In this document: one piece after another, positions 16,391-54,294 of the stretch
How the letters are laid out: each line of letters starts with the position of its first letter
Numbering within the stretch: the stretch's first letter is position 1
Source of the DNA: a virus
Virus record (IMG/VR): IMGVR_UViG_3300027714_000008
Location: 34,739 to 98,738 of that record
DNA: 64,000 bases
Strand: one strand, 5' to 3'
The notes under the pieces: model-generated
Seen by the model: the letters and a program-made list of their open reading frames with translations, nothing else
Databases searched by the model: none
What the model was told of the DNA's origin: nothing
Program-made: the position numbers and the translations under genes

Positions 16391-19300
16391 TTAGTTTAAT
16401 AGGTTGCCAGCGGCATTATATACATTAATTCTATAATGAGAAGCCGCTTGTCCGTCTAAAGTACCAGCATTAACACCACTTGTGCCGTTGACATCAACTG
16501 TTCTAAGGGCAGTTAGTATCTGTGCGGCTGTCTGATCGGCTGTAGCACTTGATTCAATGCCGTCTAGTTTAGTACCATCGGCGGCAACGTCACGACCATC
16601 AACTGTTCCCGATGCGGCAAGGTTGACAACAGTTAACGTACCTGAGCTAGAATTAAAGGTAAGATTAGAACCACTCTTTGGCGGCAATTCGCCTGTCGCA
16701 CCAGTTGTAAATAATGGAAAACAAGTCGTATCACTTGATTCATCTGCTACTGTAACAGCAGTAGCAACAGCTGCTAAAGCAACATCAATATTAGCCGTAC
16801 CATTGAAAGATGTACCACCGATAGTTCTTGCAGTTGCTAATGCAGTTGCAGTTGCCGATAAATCTACTGCAATATTAGCACTACCATTAAATGATGTTCC
16901 ACCAATAGTCCTTGCAGTTGTTAAAGTGGCGGCTGAACCAGATGTGTTTTGATTACCAGTTGCATTAACACCAGCAAGGTTTATATTCGCTGATCCATTA
17001 AATGATACACCACCAATAGTCCTTGCAGTTGCTAATGTAGTTGCGGTATTCGCTAAACCCACTGCAATATTAGCACTACCATTAAATGATGTACCGCCAA
17101 TTGTTCTTGCAGTTGTTAGCGTAGCGGCTGAACCAGATGTGTTTTGATTACCAGTTGCATTAACACCAGCAAGATTTATATTAGCACCACCATTAAACGA
17201 TACGCCACCAATAGTTCTTGCAGTTGCCAATGTAGTTGCAGTTGCGGCATTACCAGTGACTTCACCAGTAAAATTAGTTGCTGTTATTTTACCTGTACTT
17301 GGATTGTAAGTAAGCCCTGTGTCATGTTTTATCGCCGTAACTGCGCCACTTGTTGCCGCGTCAAACTTAATTGTAAAGTTTGTGTTAGTTGATTCGTCTG
17401 CTGTTGTTACAGCACCAGCAGCTGCCCATGATAGTGTTTTGTCACCACTTGTTACTAAGGCTTGTCCAGCAGAACCATCTGCATTTGGCAATGTCCATAT
17501 AACGTTAGCGGATGGAGAAACTGGTTGACCAAATCCTACATAGTTACTTGCGTTACTGTCAAGGAACCTTTGTTCTGTTACTGCTGACACAAGTGATGTT
17601 AATACGCCTGAGCTAGGGTTATATGTTAAGCCAGTATCCGTCTCAATACCCTGTGTCCCTGTTGCACCATCTACGAATGTAGGAAATACTGTTTCATTGG
17701 CTGTATTGTTAGCAGTTGCCGTAATTGCAGTTCCTATTGCTGCAGTGCCAGATGTGTTTTGATTACCAGCAGCATTAACACCAGCAAGGTTTATATTCGC
17801 TGATCCATTAAAGGATACGCCACCGATTGTTCTTGGAGTAGCTAAGATGGTTGCAGTTGCCGCATTACCAGTTAATTCACCTGTAAGTGCGCCCTCAAAT
17901 GTACCAGCTTTAACAATACCCAACGTGACTGAACTATCAGCCATGTTTATAGTACCTGAAACATCAGAGTCGTAAGCGTTTAAGAATGTCCACTTAGTCT
18001 CACTCACATCAAAGAATAGACCCACGTGAGTGTGGCCTATACCTGAGCTACCAGTGTTTCTGTTTGTAAATATACCAGTATCAACATTGATAGGAGATGC
18101 TGAACCTAGCCATGCGTTATTTAATGTGTGACCAGTTACTGCACCAAATTCTACACTAATACCATTTGCTAATGTGTGCGCACTATCGTTAATTCTAATA
18201 TTTTCACCTAGGACAGTAGAAAATGCAGAGTCATAAGAAAACTTGAATGAGTCACCAGCCGAGTCTGCACTATCAATTGCAAGATAGAAAGCTCTGTTGA
18301 CAATATCTGTAAAGTGACCTTTAAGAACCGCATCATCAAGACCTGAACCTGTTACCAATGCAGTGTTTGCATCACCTATTGTATCACCTTGGTTAAGATT
18401 ATTAAATGCGCCACCAATATTGATATTCTGTGTGGATGCGTTTACTTGAGTACCTAAAACTGTTAAGTTATTACCAACAACCAAATTAGTGCCTATGTGA
18501 GCATCACCAATAGTTCTAAAAGTTTGAGTCGTATCATGGCTTAACTCGACCAGAATTTGTCCAGTGCTTGCATGACTTGTTAAAACACGACCAACTGTAA
18601 TTGGAAAGTTAGGGAATGAATTTTCTGTACTAGACAATGCACCAGCTGATGCTCCAAGGAATACAGCGGCATTGGCAGTCAAAGAAGACGTGTCGATGTT
18701 ATTTACTAGACCTGAGTTTGTTACGTACCCAAATGTGCCATTCTCAATATCATGGGTTGCAAGACCAGAAACTTCGTAGTGATCCGCGTTTGATCCGTTT
18801 GCAAGTCCGATTGTAGGTGTAGTACCTTGCACACCAACATAATAGACTGGTTTACCATCAAGGATTGTTGCACCAGATCCGTTATAAACTCTAGTAACTT
18901 GCTCTTGACCAACTTGTAAAGTCATAGCAGCTTCGTCGTTGTAGACTGCTAAAGCACCGAATGCTGAGTCGTAAAATACTCGACCTTCTGCATGTGCAGG
19001 GATAATACCAGAATAATCTAAGAAGCCTGGTGCAATTGAAGTGGCAGTGACAACATCGAATGTTACGTCGTCTGTTGTTGCAACTGCTTGACCAATAGCA
19101 ATGTCGTTGGCATTTACTGTGACACCAGTACCAGCACCAATGTTTAATGTGCGTGTAGCTGCAATAGTACCACCGCCTGTCAAACCTGCACCAGCAGTAA
19201 TTGTTACGCCGGTGTGATCAATATGTTCGTTTGCAACAAATCCACTTAGATTGTCGTGTACGATTTGTCCGTCATTAGTTGTGATGTTATCTGCATTTGC

Positions 19301-47177: not shown

Positions 47178-47768
47178 ATGAGTAATATTTTTAAAAACAT
47201 GGAATTAGAAGCCTTTCGTAACGGAATTCAGCCGCGTACTAAACAGTCGCGTGAATGGTTTCGTAAGAAGGCTGTTGCAATGGGTAAAGTCAATCGTGCA
47301 ACTCTAATGAAAGAAGACCCTATCGTTCTAAAGAATAGAACAGTGCTTGGATCTATGTGTATGTTTTTCTATGACCCAAAAGGTAAAGACACTTTACCAT
47401 TCTATGATTCATTCCCTTTAGTTATCGTTTTAGGTCCTGCCAAAGGTGGTTTTATGGGATTGAACTTACACTACCTACCATTAGTTCTACGAGCAAAGTT
47501 TTTAGACAATTTACTTGATGTGACAAGCAATAAAAAATATAATAGAAGCACTCGATTTGATGTGACGTATGATCTTTTACAAGGTGCGGCAAAGTTTAAA
47601 GAGTTTAAACCATGTCTAAAGCATTACTTGTCTAGTCAAGTAAGAAGTAAGTTTGCATTTGTAGAAGCACCTGAGTGGGAAATTGCCGCTTTCTTACCAA
47701 CAGCCGATTTCCAGAAAGCGTCTGCAACTAAAGTCCATGCAGATTCAAGAAGAAAGATTAATAAATGA
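47178..47768 (+). CDS. Virion protein, possibly DNA end protector gp2
   Basis: A 196-aa basic protein: QPRTKQSREWFRKKAVAMGK, FYDSFPLVIVLGPAKGGFMG, LNLHYLPLVLRAKFLDNLL, FKPCLKHYLSSQVRSKFAFV and WEIAAFLPTADFQKASATKV. These motifs look like those I associate with T4 gp2-type DNA end protectors, and gene 2 is beside gene 4 in T4, but I could not check the alignment. An alternative start at 47199 (MELEAF) is possible given the late box just upstream. Confidence 0.55.
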   Translation: MSNIFKNMELEAFRNGIQPRTKQSREWFRKKAVAMGKVNRATLMKEDPIVLKNRTVLGSMCMFFYDPKGKDTLPFYDSFPLVIVLGPAKGGFMGLNLHYLPLVLRAKFLDNLLDVTSNKKYNRSTRFDVTYDLLQGAAKFKEFKPCLKHYLSSQVRSKFAFVEAPEWEIAAFLPTADFQKASATKVHADSRRKINK

Positions 47769-48472
47769 CATATAGTGTAGATCAATTAAAAGGATTGATG
47801 TCTAGTAAAGGTGGCATTGCAATGGGCAATGTCTACAGAGTTATACTTCCGTCACTTCCCGGTGCGACTTCTACAGATGTAAATTTGTTATGCTCAAGAG
47901 TAAATATTCCAGGCAAACAGGTTGTTACGTATGATCGAGAAATTGGTCACAAGATGGAAAAAATTGCATACAGACAATTGTATGAAGATGTTACTATGAC
48001 TTTCTTCTTACTGAATGATTATGGTGTGCGTAACTATTTTGATACTTGGACAGACGCAATCGTAGATCAAGACTCTTATCAGATAAAGTATAAGAACACA
48101 TATACAAAACAGATTAAGATACAGCAATTAAAGAAAGGTATTGGTTTTCCTGTGTATTCTACACCATTGGGACTGCCTTTGTTACCAGCAGAAATACAGA
48201 ACAGACTTCCAAGTATAGGTGGATTTGATCTTGCACAAGGAACATTCGACTTAGATTTCATTACGGACGATAAAGTAGTGTATGAAGTTTCTTTAGAGGA
48301 AGCTTTTCCTACTACTATAACAGGTGTAGAACTCGGTAATGCTAATGGTGAGATACTTGAGTTTAACGTCACTTTCTCGTACACTAAATACAATATAACA
48401 AAGAGCAGACAAGCAACACCTAACAGTGATTTTATAACGTCACAACTTGGCACATTATTAACTAATATATGA
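47765..48472 (+). CDS. 54: Baseplate tail tube initiator, gp54-like
   Basis: A 235-aa protein of the tail-tube fold family: VYRVILPSLPGATSTDVNLL, CSRVNIPGKQVVTYDREIG, YEDVTMTFFLLNDYGVRNYF, then EEAFPTTITGVELGNANGEI and EFNVTFSYTKYNI. The pattern (SRVNIPG...Y.DVTMTF...Y..RNYFDTW...FPT.....L) is shared by gp19 and gp54. Its place beside gp26/51 and the tape measure favours gp54. T4 gp54 is 320 aa. Overlaps the previous gene by ATGA. Confidence 0.72.
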   Translation: MTYSVDQLKGLMSSKGGIAMGNVYRVILPSLPGATSTDVNLLCSRVNIPGKQVVTYDREIGHKMEKIAYRQLYEDVTMTFFLLNDYGVRNYFDTWTDAIVDQDSYQIKYKNTYTKQIKIQQLKKGIGFPVYSTPLGLPLLPAEIQNRLPSIGGFDLAQGTFDLDFITDDKVVYEVSLEEAFPTTITGVELGNANGEILEFNVTFSYTKYNITKSRQATPNSDFITSQLGTLLTNI

Positions 48473-48483
48473 GGACTACCTGA

Positions 48484-49197
48484 ATGGCACTACCAAAACT
48501 GAATGATACTCCAAAGCACGAACTTGTTATACCTTCAAGCAACCAAAAAATTAGATATAGACCTTACTTGGTGAAAGAAGAAAAGGTTATGATGATGGCT
48601 ATGGAATCACAAGACATGACGGCAATTCTTAATGCCGTGGCTGATACAGTCGATGCTTGTATTGAGAATGACATTAGTACGAAAGAGTTGGCTATATTCG
48701 ACATTGAATATTTGTTCACACAGATACGAGCAAAGTCTGTTGGCGAAAGTAGCAAAATAAACCTTAAATGTTCTAATAAAGAATGTGAAGTTGATAACGA
48801 GATTGATGTAGATATTTCAAGTATCACGATCGATGTTCCTGATATTGATCATGTCATTAAGATTACTGATGAAATTAGTATAGAAATGAAATGGCCTTCG
48901 TATTCTGATATGTTAGAGTTGGGTATCACAGATGCACAATCAGCTAACGAAGGTGCGTTTGCAATGATTGCTAAATGTATTAGTGCAATCGTCACAGAAG
49001 AAGAAAGAATTGTGACATCTGATGTACCAAAAAAAGAAGTGTCAGACTTTATTGACTCTATGACTAAAGACCAGTTTTCTAAAGTAAGTGCCTACATTGA
49101 ATCTATGCCTAAACTATCTCACACAGTCAATTTCGATTGTAACAAATGTAAACATGCCAACGAAATTGTTTTAGAAGGTCTGGCAGATTTTTTTTAA
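48484..49197 (+). CDS. 26: Baseplate hub/tail assembly chaperone gp26
   Basis: A 237-aa protein of the T4 gp26 baseplate family: IRYRPYLVKEEKVMMMAMES, ILNAVADTVDACIENDISTK and FDIEYLFTQIRAKSVGESSK. Two Cys pairs (LKCSNKEC and FDCNKCKHANE) look like a zinc site. The C-terminus ends in LADFF at an 8-T run; a -1 slip there continues into a gp51-like frame. A GAGGA ribosome site precedes the ATG. It lies directly before the tape measure gene, where tail assembly chaperones with programmed frameshifts are typically found. Confidence 0.88.
   Translation: MALPKLNDTPKHELVIPSSNQKIRYRPYLVKEEKVMMMAMESQDMTAILNAVADTVDACIENDISTKELAIFDIEYLFTQIRAKSVGESSKINLKCSNKECEVDNEIDVDISSITIDVPDIDHVIKITDEISIEMKWPSYSDMLELGITDAQSANEGAFAMIAKCISAIVTEEERIVTSDVPKKEVSDFIDSMTKDQFSKVSAYIESMPKLSHTVNFDCNKCKHANEIVLEGLADFF
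49188..49194 (+). promoter_or_regulatory. Candidate -1 ribosomal frameshift site
   Basis: The heptamer T TTT TTT, read in the gp26 frame (GAT TTT TTT TAA), allows both tRNAs to re-pair after a -1 slip and avoids the TAA immediately after. The -1 frame then stays open for 61 codons to a TAA at 49377. Confidence 0.75.
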
Positions 49198-49379
49198 TAT
49201 GCCTTTCTCACGACAACTTGGTGAATTATTACGGAACAAACTTTCAATTGATGCAACATCATAGTTACTCATTGACTGAAATAGAACTAATGATTCCGTG
49301 GGAAAGAGAAGTCTACTTGAATATGTTAATGGATTATTTGAAAGAAGAAAAAGAAGCAGAAAGACAAAGGAACGCCTAA
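49194..49379 (+). CDS. 51: gp51-like frame, probably made as gp26-51 fusion by -1 frameshift
   Basis: This frame has no good start codon near its beginning. From the slip point it reads LICLSHDNLVNYYGTNFQLM, then QHHSYSLTEIELMIPWEREV and YLNMLMDYLKEEKEAERQRN before the stop. The NYY..NF.LM..H.YSLTEIE.MIP.ERE.Y pattern is what I recall for the C-terminal part of gp26/gp51 proteins in related phages. A GTG at 49221 (VNYYG) could be an independent start, but no ribosome site is evident there. The stop lies 1 bp before the tape measure ATG. Confidence 0.68.
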   Translation, partial: LICLSHDNLVNYYGTNFQLMQHHSYSLTEIELMIPWEREVYLNMLMDYLKEEKEAERQRNA

Positions 49380-49380
49380 C

Positions 49381-51240
49381 ATGGCTGATGCAACACTCAA
49401 TGACGTAATATTAAAATTACGTGCTGATAACGATAAACAATTAAGAGAACAACACAGCACAACAGATGCAGTTAAAAACTTGTCTAGTACCATAAGAGCG
49501 TTGCTTGAAAAGATGGAAGGCGACGCATTAAAGAATCGTGAAGCTTTACTTGAGGCCAATAAGAAAAATAAACAACCTAAACCAGATACGAACACTAGTA
49601 GTAGAAGTAGTAGTAATGGTAAAAGTTTAGCTGTATTTGGTAATCCTTTTAAAGGTTTGTTCAGTAGTATAGGTTCGCTTGTTGCATTTGCTGGAGCGTT
49701 TGCATTGGCTACTGAAGGTTTAGGTCCTTCTATAAAAGATCTAAATAAATTTACAAAAGGTATGAACAAATTATTCCTCTTGCCAGCAAGATTAGCAACA
49801 GACCTTGTTGTAGCTCCTGGAAAATCCATATACGATAAAGTCTTTAAAAATGTTAAGTTGATCGAGGATTCGGTAGAAAAACGTTTTAGCCCCTTTTTAA
49901 GACGAGTGACTCCAGGTGATATTGCAAGGGGGTTGAAAACAAAGAGTGGAGAGCTAGTTAAACTTGGACAGGTCACTAATTTAGCAGATGCAAGAGAAAG
50001 TTCGCTTACTCAAAAACAAAAACCTCAAAGTGCCTTAGTTCGTTTTTTTAGTGACATAAACAGAATGATTAAAAATGTTATGCCTACCAAAACAGTAAAA
50101 AGTGCGATAGAAAAACTAAAACCAGTATTCGAAGCGATTAAAAATAATAGAATGTTGCTAAACATTGTTAGGTTTGTAAAACCGCTTGCCGCAATCCTTT
50201 CTGTATTTGATGGTATTAAAACCGCCAGAAAAGAGATGGAAGACGAACAAGGTATTGTTGATAAATTATTTGCTGGTACAGGTGGTTTGGTAGGCGGAAC
50301 TCTTGGCTCTTTCTTTGGAGAGTTTGCAAACGTGCTAAAAAATATACCTATTTTTATTATCAAAAAACTGTTACCAAAAGATTATTTAATAACAGATAAA
50401 GATGGTAATGTTACTATTAATAAAGATAAAAACCTATTAACTAAAATTTTAGGTGGAATAGAAACACTCGACTTCAATCAATTAATTAAAGACCTTATTC
50501 AAATTCCATTTGAAAAGACGGGTGAGGCAATCACATCTATAACAACTGGTCTTGGGTGGACTGGAACTGAAGACGAAAAAATTAAATCAAAAGCCGCATG
50601 GACTACATGGTGGAATAACTGGAAGACACTGAATGGTTTCGGAAAGAATGTGTCTAGTATGGCTGGCGTTGCCTTTGAAATAGTATATTCTCCTGTCAAT
50701 ACAATATTAGAGGCACTTTTAAAGAATTTCACTAAGGATGGACAGGATAGAGAAAAGACTACTATGATGGAAAAGATAAACAAGTTTGCTCTTTTCATAC
50801 AAGACCTTATTCCAAGTCCACAGTATTTCATTGATCGGCTTCCTGAAGGAGTTGCAAAAGCATTAGGGTTAACACATTCACGACAACATAATAATGATTT
50901 AATTAACAGTACCAGCGATATCCGTGAAATCATAAAAGACATTAATAACATTAAAGACCTTCGAGCTGATATGAGATTAGCTAAAGTTAGAGCGACTGGA
51001 AGTGGTTCTTATATGTTGAATAGTGATTTAGAGCAAGAATTTTCTACCCGATTAAAAGAACGACGAGAAAAACTAAAAGCAGAAATATTCAATAGTAAAC
51101 TAACACAATTTAATGCCAATAACGATGGAGCTAAACTTGATGCGCCTGTGATAAATAATAATAACAATGCTATCGGTGATGCTGTTTTTCTGTCAGCTCC
51201 TGAGTCACATCATCCTGAAAGCCTACGATTTCCTAGATAG
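49381..51240 (+). CDS. 29: Tail tape measure protein gp29-like
   Basis: A 619-aa protein, close to T4 gp29 (590 aa). The N-terminus is coiled (ILKLRADNDKQLREQHSTTD, LSSTIRALLEKMEGDALKNR), followed by a hydrophobic Gly/Ala segment (GSLVAFAGAFALATEGLGPS) and a second one (LFAGTGGLVGGTLGSFFGEF), which are features of tape measures that enter the membrane during DNA ejection. The C-terminus has more coil (LKERREKLKAEIFN). Position after the gp26/51 chaperone supports the call; the protein sets tail length and threads the tube. Confidence 0.85.
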   Translation: MADATLNDVILKLRADNDKQLREQHSTTDAVKNLSSTIRALLEKMEGDALKNREALLEANKKNKQPKPDTNTSSRSSSNGKSLAVFGNPFKGLFSSIGSLVAFAGAFALATEGLGPSIKDLNKFTKGMNKLFLLPARLATDLVVAPGKSIYDKVFKNVKLIEDSVEKRFSPFLRRVTPGDIARGLKTKSGELVKLGQVTNLADARESSLTQKQKPQSALVRFFSDINRMIKNVMPTKTVKSAIEKLKPVFEAIKNNRMLLNIVRFVKPLAAILSVFDGIKTARKEMEDEQGIVDKLFAGTGGLVGGTLGSFFGEFANVLKNIPIFIIKKLLPKDYLITDKDGNVTINKDKNLLTKILGGIETLDFNQLIKDLIQIPFEKTGEAITSITTGLGWTGTEDEKIKSKAAWTTWWNNWKTLNGFGKNVSSMAGVAFEIVYSPVNTILEALLKNFTKDGQDREKTTMMEKINKFALFIQDLIPSPQYFIDRLPEGVAKALGLTHSRQHNNDLINSTSDIREIIKDINNIKDLRADMRLAKVRATGSGSYMLNSDLEQEFSTRLKERREKLKAEIFNSKLTQFNANNDGAKLDAPVINNNNNAIGDAVFLSAPESHHPESLRFPR

Positions 51241-51903: not shown

Positions 51904-52205
51904 TGCAATTACAAGATACAATCAATAGTATAATTCAATGGCATTATGATCGTAATTTGATTGATGGAAGTTCAGACAAAGATCAGTACCTAAAGCTCAT
52001 ACAAGAAGCTGGTGAGTTGTCTGATAATATTTGTAAAGGTAAAGACATTCGTGACGACATCGGTGATATGATGGTTGTCCTTATCAATATTATGGAACGT
52101 AATAACTTAACTTTAAATGAATGTCTTGAAGTTGCCTATAACGATATTAAAGATCGTAAAGGTAGAATGGTTGATGGTGTGTTTGTTAAAGAGGATGATA
52201 AGTGA
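51903..52205 (+). CDS. MazG-like nucleotide pyrophosphohydrolase
   Basis: A 100-aa protein with the MazG metal site: LIQEAGELSD (E35 and E38) and DDIGDMMV (D52 and D55), an ExxE...DxxD arrangement in a four-helix dimer. MazG proteins hydrolyse (d)NTPs, and phage copies are thought to lower ppGpp or clean the nucleotide pool. Preceded by TAATG and followed by a GTGA overlap with a DNA methyltransferase gene, it is in one translation unit with DNA modification genes. Confidence 0.82.
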   Translation: MQLQDTINSIIQWHYDRNLIDGSSDKDQYLKLIQEAGELSDNICKGKDIRDDIGDMMVVLINIMERNNLTLNECLEVAYNDIKDRKGRMVDGVFVKEDDK

Positions 52206-52981
52206 AACTACTACAAGGCGATTGCTTGGAACTAATGAAGACTATACCTGATGGTTCTGTTGACTTAGTGCTGACAGACCCACCATATGGAACTACAGCT
52301 TGTAAATGGGATATTGTTATTCCTTTTGAACCTATGTGGGATCATTTGAAGCGACTAATTAAACCGAACGGCGCGATTGTATTATTCGGAAAAGAACCAT
52401 TTTCAAGTGTTTTAAGATGCTCAAATTTAAATATGTTTAAATATGATTGGATATGGAAAAAAGATACAAAGTCTAATTTTCCACAAGCATCATTTCAGCC
52501 ATTAAATAATATTGAAGATGTTATTGTTTTTTCTAATGGTTATGCGAGAAACTTTCCAAAAGGTAGTGACAAGATAAATGACATAATGGTTTACAATCCT
52601 CAAATGTCAGATGGAAAGAAGTATAAAATCCCAAAAGCCTCAAAAACAACAGAAGTTTTTAATGTAAATCATAAGAATGGAGAATACAAGCATAAAGAAA
52701 AAGATACTACAAAGAGGTTTCCATTTAACACTATTGAAATAAACACAGATAAAAAAAGAGTACACCCAACACAAAAGCCAGTAGCATTAATGGAGTATCT
52801 AATCAAGACCTACACCAACGAGGGTGAAACAGTTTTAGACTTCACAATGGGTAGTGGAACAACAGGTGTAGCCGCTAAAAACCTAAACCGAAGCTTTATT
52901 GGTATTGAGCTTGACAAAGACTACTACAATATTGCAAAAGAGCGCATACAAAATGCGAATCTACTTGGAGACTTTTTATAA
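52202..52981 (+). CDS. DNA methyltransferase (259 aa, N6A/N4C type)
   Basis: A 259-aa enzyme with the DPPY catalytic motif at residues 26-29 (LVLTDPPYGTT) and the SAM-binding FxGxG-type motif near the C-terminus (VLDFTMGSGTTGVAAKNL), the beta-class order. KRVHPTQKPVALMEYLI is the usual connecting segment. It starts with GTG in a GTGA overlap with mazG. No restriction enzyme is adjacent, so it is an orphan enzyme, probably protecting phage DNA or acting on regulation. Confidence 0.9.
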   Translation: MKLLQGDCLELMKTIPDGSVDLVLTDPPYGTTACKWDIVIPFEPMWDHLKRLIKPNGAIVLFGKEPFSSVLRCSNLNMFKYDWIWKKDTKSNFPQASFQPLNNIEDVIVFSNGYARNFPKGSDKINDIMVYNPQMSDGKKYKIPKASKTTEVFNVNHKNGEYKHKEKDTTKRFPFNTIEINTDKKRVHPTQKPVALMEYLIKTYTNEGETVLDFTMGSGTTGVAAKNLNRSFIGIELDKDYYNIAKERIQNANLLGDFL

Positions 52982-54294
52982 TGACTGACGTGAAACTTAT
53001 GCTAGGCAATTGCTTAGATCGACTAAAAGACCTTGATGATAATTCAGTAGACAGCATTGTCACTGATCCACCTTATGGAATTGATTTCATGGGTAAGAAG
53101 TGGGACTACGATGTTCCGTCTACAGAGATTTGGGAACAAGCGTTAAGAGTTCTCAAACCAGGTGGTTATCTATTAGCATTTGCTGGCACACGAACACAGC
53201 ATCGTATGGCAGTTCGTATTGAGGATGCTGGTTTTGAAATCAGGGATATGATTGCATGGGTGTATGGTAGTGGATTTCCTAAGTCTCACAATATCAGCAA
53301 GTCTCTTGATAAAATGGCTGGTGCTGAACGTGAGATAATTGGGAAGCACAATGGAAGCGGAATGACCAAATCAAATGTTGAGCAGGGAGCGCAAAAGAGG
53401 AACGTCACAGAGTGGAATACATACTCTGACGTCCCAGTCACCGATGAAGCCAAACAATGGGAAGGTTGGGGTACTGCACTCAAACCTGCATTAGAACCTA
53501 TTACAGTTGCACGTAAACCACTAGGAGAAAAGACTGTTGCCAAGAATGTATTGAAATATGGCACTGGTGGTATCAATATTGATGCTAGTCGAGTTGCACA
53601 TATCACTGTTGGTGATGGAAGTAATCTTGCACTGAACTCACATCTTAGGGAGGGTATAAATGGTGGCAATGGTGGTAAAATTATTGCGACAGAACCAGAT
53701 CGCCGCACGACTATACCAAATAATTCAGGTAGATTCCCCGCAAACTTTATTCACGATGGTTCTGAGGAAGTTACGAGTGGGTTTCCTAACACTAAAAGTG
53801 GCAGATCAAATGGCAATGCTCCAATTGGAGAAAGTGGGGTAAATGTGCCATTGCGTAGAGGCGTTGTGGTTGAAAGAAATGATGATGGTTCAGCCGCACG
53901 TTTCTTCTATGTTCCAAAGACATCTAAGAAAGATCGTAATGATGGGCTAGAGAACTTTACACCAAAGGCCACAGCGTCTTCTGAGTTCAGACCAAACCAT
54001 GCAGAGAAAGCAGATAATGGTGAAGATGGCAATCCATATGGACGTTGGACGCCCACACAGAACAACCACCCTACTGTAAAACCTACAGACCTTATGCGTT
54101 ACCTTGTAACTATGGTAACACCAAAAGGTGGTACAACACTTGATCCGTTTATGGGTAGTGGCTCTACAGGACGTGGTGCAAAGCTAGGTGGTTTTAACTT
54201 CATTGGTATTGAACTAGACGAAAACTACCTAGAGATTGCTAAAGCTAGAATTGATGTTGTATCTACTGAAGTTACGTTAGGAGACTTTTTATAA
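52981..54294 (+). CDS. DNA methyltransferase (437 aa, N6A/N4C type)
   Basis: A 437-aa enzyme: DPPY at residues 29-32 (IVTDPPYGIDFMGKKWDYD) and the SAM motif near residue 400 (LDPFMGSGSTGRGAKLGGFN), with NHPTVKPTDLMRYLVTMV before it. It is longer than the neighbour because of a Gly/Asn-rich central insert (EGINGGNGGKII...) that may be the target recognition domain. It begins in the TAATG of the previous methyltransferase, so the two are coupled but not close duplicates. Confidence 0.9.
   Translation: MTDVKLMLGNCLDRLKDLDDNSVDSIVTDPPYGIDFMGKKWDYDVPSTEIWEQALRVLKPGGYLLAFAGTRTQHRMAVRIEDAGFEIRDMIAWVYGSGFPKSHNISKSLDKMAGAEREIIGKHNGSGMTKSNVEQGAQKRNVTEWNTYSDVPVTDEAKQWEGWGTALKPALEPITVARKPLGEKTVAKNVLKYGTGGINIDASRVAHITVGDGSNLALNSHLREGINGGNGGKIIATEPDRRTTIPNNSGRFPANFIHDGSEEVTSGFPNTKSGRSNGNAPIGESGVNVPLRRGVVVERNDDGSAARFFYVPKTSKKDRNDGLENFTPKATASSEFRPNHAEKADNGEDGNPYGRWTPTQNNHPTVKPTDLMRYLVTMVTPKGGTTLDPFMGSGSTGRGAKLGGFNFIGIELDENYLEIAKARIDVVSTEVTLGDFL

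What the first reader, a model, noticed from the sequence alone, without database searches (positions are those of the whole stretch)
49100..49379. Probable programmed -1 frameshift joining gp26 to a gp51-like frame before the tape measure gene
The gp26 frame ends GAT TTT TTT TAA. The heptamer T TTT TTT (49188-49194) lets both tRNAs re-pair after a -1 slip, and the new frame is open for 61 codons, ending 1 bp before the tape measure ATG. Its product is conserved-looking (NYYGTNFQLM, SYSLTEIELMIPWEREVY) and lacks a good start site. Tail assembly chaperones made by frameshifting just before the tape measure are well known in lambda-like phages (gpG/gpGT). The same layout here suggests that gp26 and gp26-51 are the equivalent pair in a T4-like phage.
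Basis: partly seen in the sequence, partly recalled or inferred. Interest (0 to 1): 0.75.

Follow-up and report, generated by a model that had tools for sequence, protein, structure and literature searches.

The report
Frameshifted tail chaperone, T4-like marine phage
A marine T4-like virus most likely makes two versions of one tail-building helper protein from a single gene by having some ribosomes slip back one base at a run of Ts; the sequence evidence across its relatives is very strong, but this kind of trick, and its presence in T4-like phages, has been reported before.

Summary
Confirmed. In the window, gp26 (48484-49197) ends GAT TTT TTT TAA. Heptamer T TTT TTT lies at 49188-49194, and a gp51-like frame is open in -1 for 61 codons, ending 1 bp before the next ORF.

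The arrangement is fixed across relatives. gp51 lies in -1 in 176/176 scored loci, and T TTT TTN is present in 175 (70 clusters at 75% aa identity). Of 78 loci picked by gp26 alone, 74 could be scored and all 74 had both. The codon before the Phe pair varies (D/N/S/A/T/H) but always ends in T. Purifying selection moves from frame 0 to -1 at the heptamer, even where no start codon exists for 18 codons. An SD-like motif 11-15 nt upstream exceeds synonymous expectation.

T4 gp51 is itself a gp26 paralog with the same C-terminal extension. Genomes with the -1 arrangement have one PF12322 gene (14/14); T4-type genomes have two (4/4).

Best reading: gp26 and gp26-51 are the short and long tail assembly chaperones, made by -1 frameshifting. 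Such frameshifting is classical, and T4-like chaperones were identified in 2022 (Vladimirov et al., seen only through citing papers). A well-supported new member of a known kind. Not shown: fusion protein, efficiency, chaperone activity.

The parts
48484..49197 (+). gp26: short chaperone form (TAC-N like), 237 aa, PF12322 / phrog_150
49173..49178 (+). weak SD-like AGAAGG, 9 nt before the heptamer; possible stimulator
   Evidence: Sequence; SD-like signal enriched over synonymous shuffles across 70 clusters; weak in the window, -4.9 kcal/mol
49188..49194 (+). slippery heptamer T TTT TTT (-1 shift site)
49195..49197 (+). 0-frame stop TAA of gp26
49194..49379 (+). -1 frame extension (gp51), 61 codons plus stop; C-terminal domain of the long form; phrog_634
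49381..51240 (+). 619-aa ORF, putative tape measure protein (by position and length only)
   Evidence: Position and length; no family match; a Caulobacter phage ORF one small ORF further on in the same layout is annotated tape measure
47765..48472 (+). tail-tube-family gene directly upstream (phrog_45)

Best explanation
One gene encodes both tail assembly chaperones of this T4-like phage. Most ribosomes stop at TAA 49195 and release gp26 (short form). A minority slip back one base on T TTT TTT (49188-49194), with both tRNAs re-pairing, and read 61 more codons to make gp26-51 (long form). By analogy with lambda gpG/gpGT, many short and few long chaperones would coat the tape-measure protein made from the next gene, and the C-terminal domain of the long form would recruit tail-tube subunits. 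Shown by sequence: the heptamer, the -1 extension, their joint conservation, selection on the -1 frame from the heptamer on, and homology of the fusion to T4 gp51. Inferred: that slippage occurs, its efficiency, and the chaperone role.
For: gp51 in -1 in 176/176 scored loci, heptamer in 175; 74/74 scored in an unselected set. Preceding codon always ends in T while its amino acid varies, first Phe always TTT. pN/pS switches frame at the heptamer, also where no start exists; entropy drop at the heptamer; in 7 clusters the -1 frame is closed just before the heptamer and has no start for 18 codons. SD-like signal 11-15 nt upstream. T4 gp51 aligns with the predicted fusion through the junction (hhalign probability 99.4, E=1.6e-21). 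One PF12322 gene with the -1 arrangement, two in T4-type genomes.
Against: No protein or ribosome data. No conserved downstream structure, and none in the window. The window's SD-like element is weak. Fold similarity to a solved tail chaperone (HK97, 2ob9) is not significant. The tape measure ORF is unproven.
Confidence: 0.9

Rival explanations
1. gp51 is a separate small protein, started at an internal codon after gp26 (independent initiation or termination-reinitiation).
For: Public records annotate it so, with varying starts. Six deeper clusters have an ATG overlapping the gp26 stop.
Against: 29 of 70 clusters have no ATG/GTG/TTG from the frame opening to -1 codon 17, yet those codons are under purifying selection. 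No conserved start position. The T run would be unexplained, and T4 gp51 shows the fused form in frame.
Confidence: 0.05
2. The frame change is made by RNA polymerase slippage on the T run (indel in the mRNA), not by the ribosome.
For: The window has 8 T in a row.
Against: 50 of 70 clusters have only 6 T, too short for efficient transcriptional slippage (own knowledge), while the heptamer phase relative to the codons is kept.
Confidence: 0.03
3. Sequencing or assembly error, or a chance T run at the end of gp26, with gp26 and gp51 really one continuous gene.
For: Homopolymer runs are error-prone; T4 gp51 is continuous.
Against: The same frame relation occurs in 176 loci from many metagenomes and in complete isolate genomes, mostly with only 6 T; no relative of this type with an in-frame gp26-51 fusion was seen.
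Confidence: 0.01

Closest known systems
T4-like tail assembly chaperones gp26 (short) and gp51 (long), Vladimirov, Gautam & Davidson, Virology 2022, 566:9-15 (PMID 34826709; not held, seen through PMC10885494 and PMC12846349)
   Same: Homologous proteins (PF12322 on T4 gp26 and gp51); same short form plus long form with the same C-terminal extension.
   Different: T4 has two separate genes on opposite strands and no slippery run; here one gene with a -1 site. The citing paper says poly-T slippery signals are known in T4-like phages, so this state is probably covered there; the text could not be read.
Lambda gpG / gpGT tail assembly chaperones (Xu, Hendrix & Duda 2004; review PMC5009743)
   Same: Short form plus -1 frameshifted long form, encoded before the tape measure gene (review passages).
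   Different: No sequence-level relation tested or shown; heptamer differs; the gp26 frame ends 0-8 codons after the site in this family.
HK97 tail assembly chaperone structure 2ob9
   Same: The tail chaperone among the PDB fold matches of the gp26 model (ranks 7 and 9).
   Different: Match not significant (E 0.6-1.2, prob 0.51-0.63); aligns to part of the model only.
Vandenendeviridae/Andersonviridae tail chaperone frameshift with GTTTTT motif (PMC12846349)
   Same: T-rich -1 site at the end of the short chaperone, -1 frame open in all genomes they examined, before the tape measure gene.
   Different: Different phage families and motif; homology to gp26 not tested here.

Membership tests
-1 programmed ribosomal frameshift | X XXY YYZ heptamer in the 0-frame phase | tested here: met
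   T TTT TTT at 49188-49194; T TTT TTN in 175/176 loci
-1 programmed ribosomal frameshift | -1 frame open and under protein-level selection from the site on | tested here: met
   pN/pS 0.28 in -1 vs 1.02 in frame 0; entropy drop
-1 programmed ribosomal frameshift | stimulatory element (upstream SD-like or downstream structure) | tested here: inconclusive
   SD-like enriched across the family but weak in the window; downstream structures lineage-specific, none in the window
-1 programmed ribosomal frameshift | frameshift product made in cells | not testable with these tools
   needs reporter or mass spectrometry
T4 gp26/gp51 family (PF12322, phrog_150, phrog_634) | profile match of short form and extension | tested here: met
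   PF12322 E=1.6e-60; phrog_150 and phrog_634
T4-like tail assembly chaperone pair | short form plus long form = short form with C-terminal extension | tested here: met
   Predicted fusion is homologous through the junction to T4-type gp51
T4-like tail assembly chaperone pair | located just before the tape measure gene | tested here: inconclusive
   A 619-aa ORF follows by 1 bp, but has no tape-measure profile match
T4-like tail assembly chaperone pair | needed for tail assembly, absent from virions, binds tape measure | not testable with these tools
   For T4, gp51 is required for assembly and not in the final particle, and both are listed as hub assembly chaperones (PMC3004832)
lambda/HK97 tail chaperone fold | structural similarity of the short form | tested here: inconclusive
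   HK97 2ob9 among matches at prob 0.51-0.63, E 0.6-1.2

The most novel reading that the evidence does not exclude
In several deeper lineages (Caulobacter, Sinorhizobium, Rhizobium/Agrobacterium and Schizotequatrovirus phages) the junction may be read in two ways: slippage at T TTT TTN gives the fusion, and an ATG overlapping the gp26 stop gives a free C-terminal domain. In Ackermannviridae-like phages the same -1 extension persists without the heptamer, so a long form there would need an undescribed shift site. The short/long chaperone ratio would then be set by several decoding solutions within one homologous family.
Probability: 0.2. Interest if true: 0.55.

Novelty: new member of a known kind. 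Interest (0 to 1): 0.4.

Why it matters
gp51 is annotated in marine phage genomes as a separate gene with varying starts, or not at all. Treating the pair as one frameshifted gene would correct these annotations, give abundant marine phages a defined tail chaperone pair, and show one family reaching the same short/long pair either by frameshifting or by two genes, with both states inside Straboviridae.

Tried and rejected
Transcriptional slippage: 50 of 70 clusters have only 6 T. A conserved downstream hairpin or pseudoknot: RNAalifold gave no consensus over 70 clusters; strong hairpins are lineage-specific (S-PM2, S-WAM1) and absent in the window. Independent start of gp51: no conserved start. 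Tape measure by profile: no match. Fold evidence for a tail chaperone: suggestive only, none for T4-type gp51. PDB relatives by sequence: none. The key prior paper was not held. No cyanophage ribosome-profiling paper was found. The fusion itself was not folded: from the tool description I judged that a -1 join could not be submitted, and did not try. The short ORF ATG 49199-49264 is in the third frame; its conservation was not tested.

Full report
What is there. gp26 (48484-49197, 237 aa) ends GAT TTT TTT TAA; heptamer T TTT TTT at 49188-49194 inside a run of 8 T; the -1 frame runs 61 codons to the stop at 49377-49379, 1 bp before ATG 49381 of a 619-aa ORF. gp26 matches PF12322 (E=1.6e-60) and phrog_150; the extension matches phrog_634 'baseplate hub assembly catalyst' (E=1.3e-25). 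The gene before gp26 is tail-tube-like. The window is part of a 98,738-base IMG/VR virus record with a single PF12322 copy; the record may be incomplete.

Conservation. Three sets of relatives were used: 80 IMG/VR loci chosen by the extension, 78 chosen by a gp26 protein alone, and annotated phage genomes (the last group was read separately). In 176 of 176 scored neighbours gp51 lies in -1 relative to gp26, never 0 or +1, and 175 have T TTT TTN (113 C, 55 T, 4 G, 3 A). In the gp26-chosen set, free of selection for the feature, all 74 scored loci have both. A few loci repeat the window phage; counts by cluster (70 at 75% aa identity) avoid this. The 0-frame stop lies 0-8 codons after the heptamer, so the heptamer rather than the gp26 end is what is kept.

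Selection on nucleotides. The residue before Phe-Phe varies (D 28, S 20, N 17, A 3, H 1, T 1 clusters) but its codon always ends in T, and the first Phe is always TTT; under the genes' own codon use these have probabilities near 10^-15 and 10^-13.5. The test was conditioned on having the run and treats clusters as independent, so these figures overstate; in the 176 scored loci only one lacked the run. T4-type gp26 genes lack it (for example TTC TTT in T4).

Where the reading frame changes. Residue entropy in -1 is mostly about 3 bits or more upstream and mostly below 2.8 after the heptamer, with many columns under 1.5; 13 of 70 clusters have a -1 stop directly before the heptamer and none has one in the 28 codons shown after it. 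In clusters without ATG/GTG/TTG from the frame opening to codon 17, codons 3-17 give pN/pS 0.28 in -1 and 1.02 in frame 0; upstream it is 0.63 in frame 0 and 1.39 in -1. In 7 clusters the frame is closed just before the heptamer and has no such start for 18 codons. Separate initiation at a usual start codon cannot explain this.

Stimulators. SD-like tetramers cluster 11-15 nt before the heptamer; mean anti-SD energy is -7.1 against -5.85 kcal/mol for synonymous shuffles (z=-7), resembling the dnaX arrangement (own knowledge). The 60 nt downstream fold more stably than synonymous shuffles (mean z -0.98; controls 0.03 and -0.35), but no shared structure exists and the window shows none. The window's SD-like element is weak.

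T4 comparison. A profile of the predicted fusion matches T4 gp26 only to the junction but T4 gp51 through it; PF12322 hits T4 gp51 residues 1-201; T4-type gp51 aligns with fusions without a gap at the junction. T4 genes 26 and 51 lie on opposite strands. Over 18 complete genomes, the 14 with a -1 extension (11 with the heptamer, 3 Ackermannviridae-like without) have one PF12322 gene and the 4 T4-type genomes have two. In a tree, T4-type gp26 and gp51 domains each form one group beside the rest; the root is unknown, so the direction of change is inferred. Straboviridae holds both states: VH7D, Aeh1 and Citrobacter Ci1 have T TTT TTC with a -1 extension. The T4-type gp51 model (mean pLDDT 82) shows a gp26-like order of elements followed by three helices.

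Prior knowledge. Tail chaperone frameshifting is widely conserved; the 2016 review says 'except T4' (PMC5009743). Vladimirov et al. 2022 identified the chaperones of T4-like phages; the paper was not held, but PMC10885494 reports from it that some T4-like phages carry a short gene and a longer fused gene, and PMC12846349 cites it for poly-T slippery signals in T4-like phages. The concept is therefore known. What is added here is this case, the breadth of the test, the SD-like signal and the copy-number match; whether that paper already holds some of these could not be checked.

Verdict. A -1 frameshift producing gp26 and gp26-51 is very likely (0.9). Occurrence, efficiency and chaperone activity are not shown.

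Noticed in passing
L097, L198, L199, L200, L201, L202, L206, L092, L094 (junction after gp26): Ackermannviridae-like phages keep a -1 extension after gp26 (e.g. IFEIDLLSYF...MPWHL) but lack the T6 heptamer; the junction reads NTT TT(C/T) NNN stop. Some have an ATG overlapping the stop, others ATT, ATC or ATA in the same place. How a long form would be made there is unexplained.
   Followed up: partly
L087, L088, L089, L090, L091, L158 (gp26 stop): Six deeper clusters have an ATG overlapping the gp26 stop (T[AG]ATG) in addition to T TTT TTN, so both slippage and reinitiation are possible.
   Followed up: partly
L085 and L083, about 60 nt after the heptamer: Synechococcus phages S-WAM1 and S-PM2 have strong lineage-specific hairpins right after the slippery site (-25.9 and -13.7 kcal/mol, z -4.9 and -3.1 against synonymous shuffles) that could stimulate shifting.
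   Followed up: no
window minus strand, near 18723: A 66-codon open frame ends at TTTGGGT one codon before its stop and continues in -1 into a frame open for 778 codons; probably a spurious overlap with the start of a long gene.
   Followed up: no
window 52202-54294: Two consecutive ORFs (259 and 437 aa) with DPPYG motifs typical of DNA methyltransferases.
   Followed up: no
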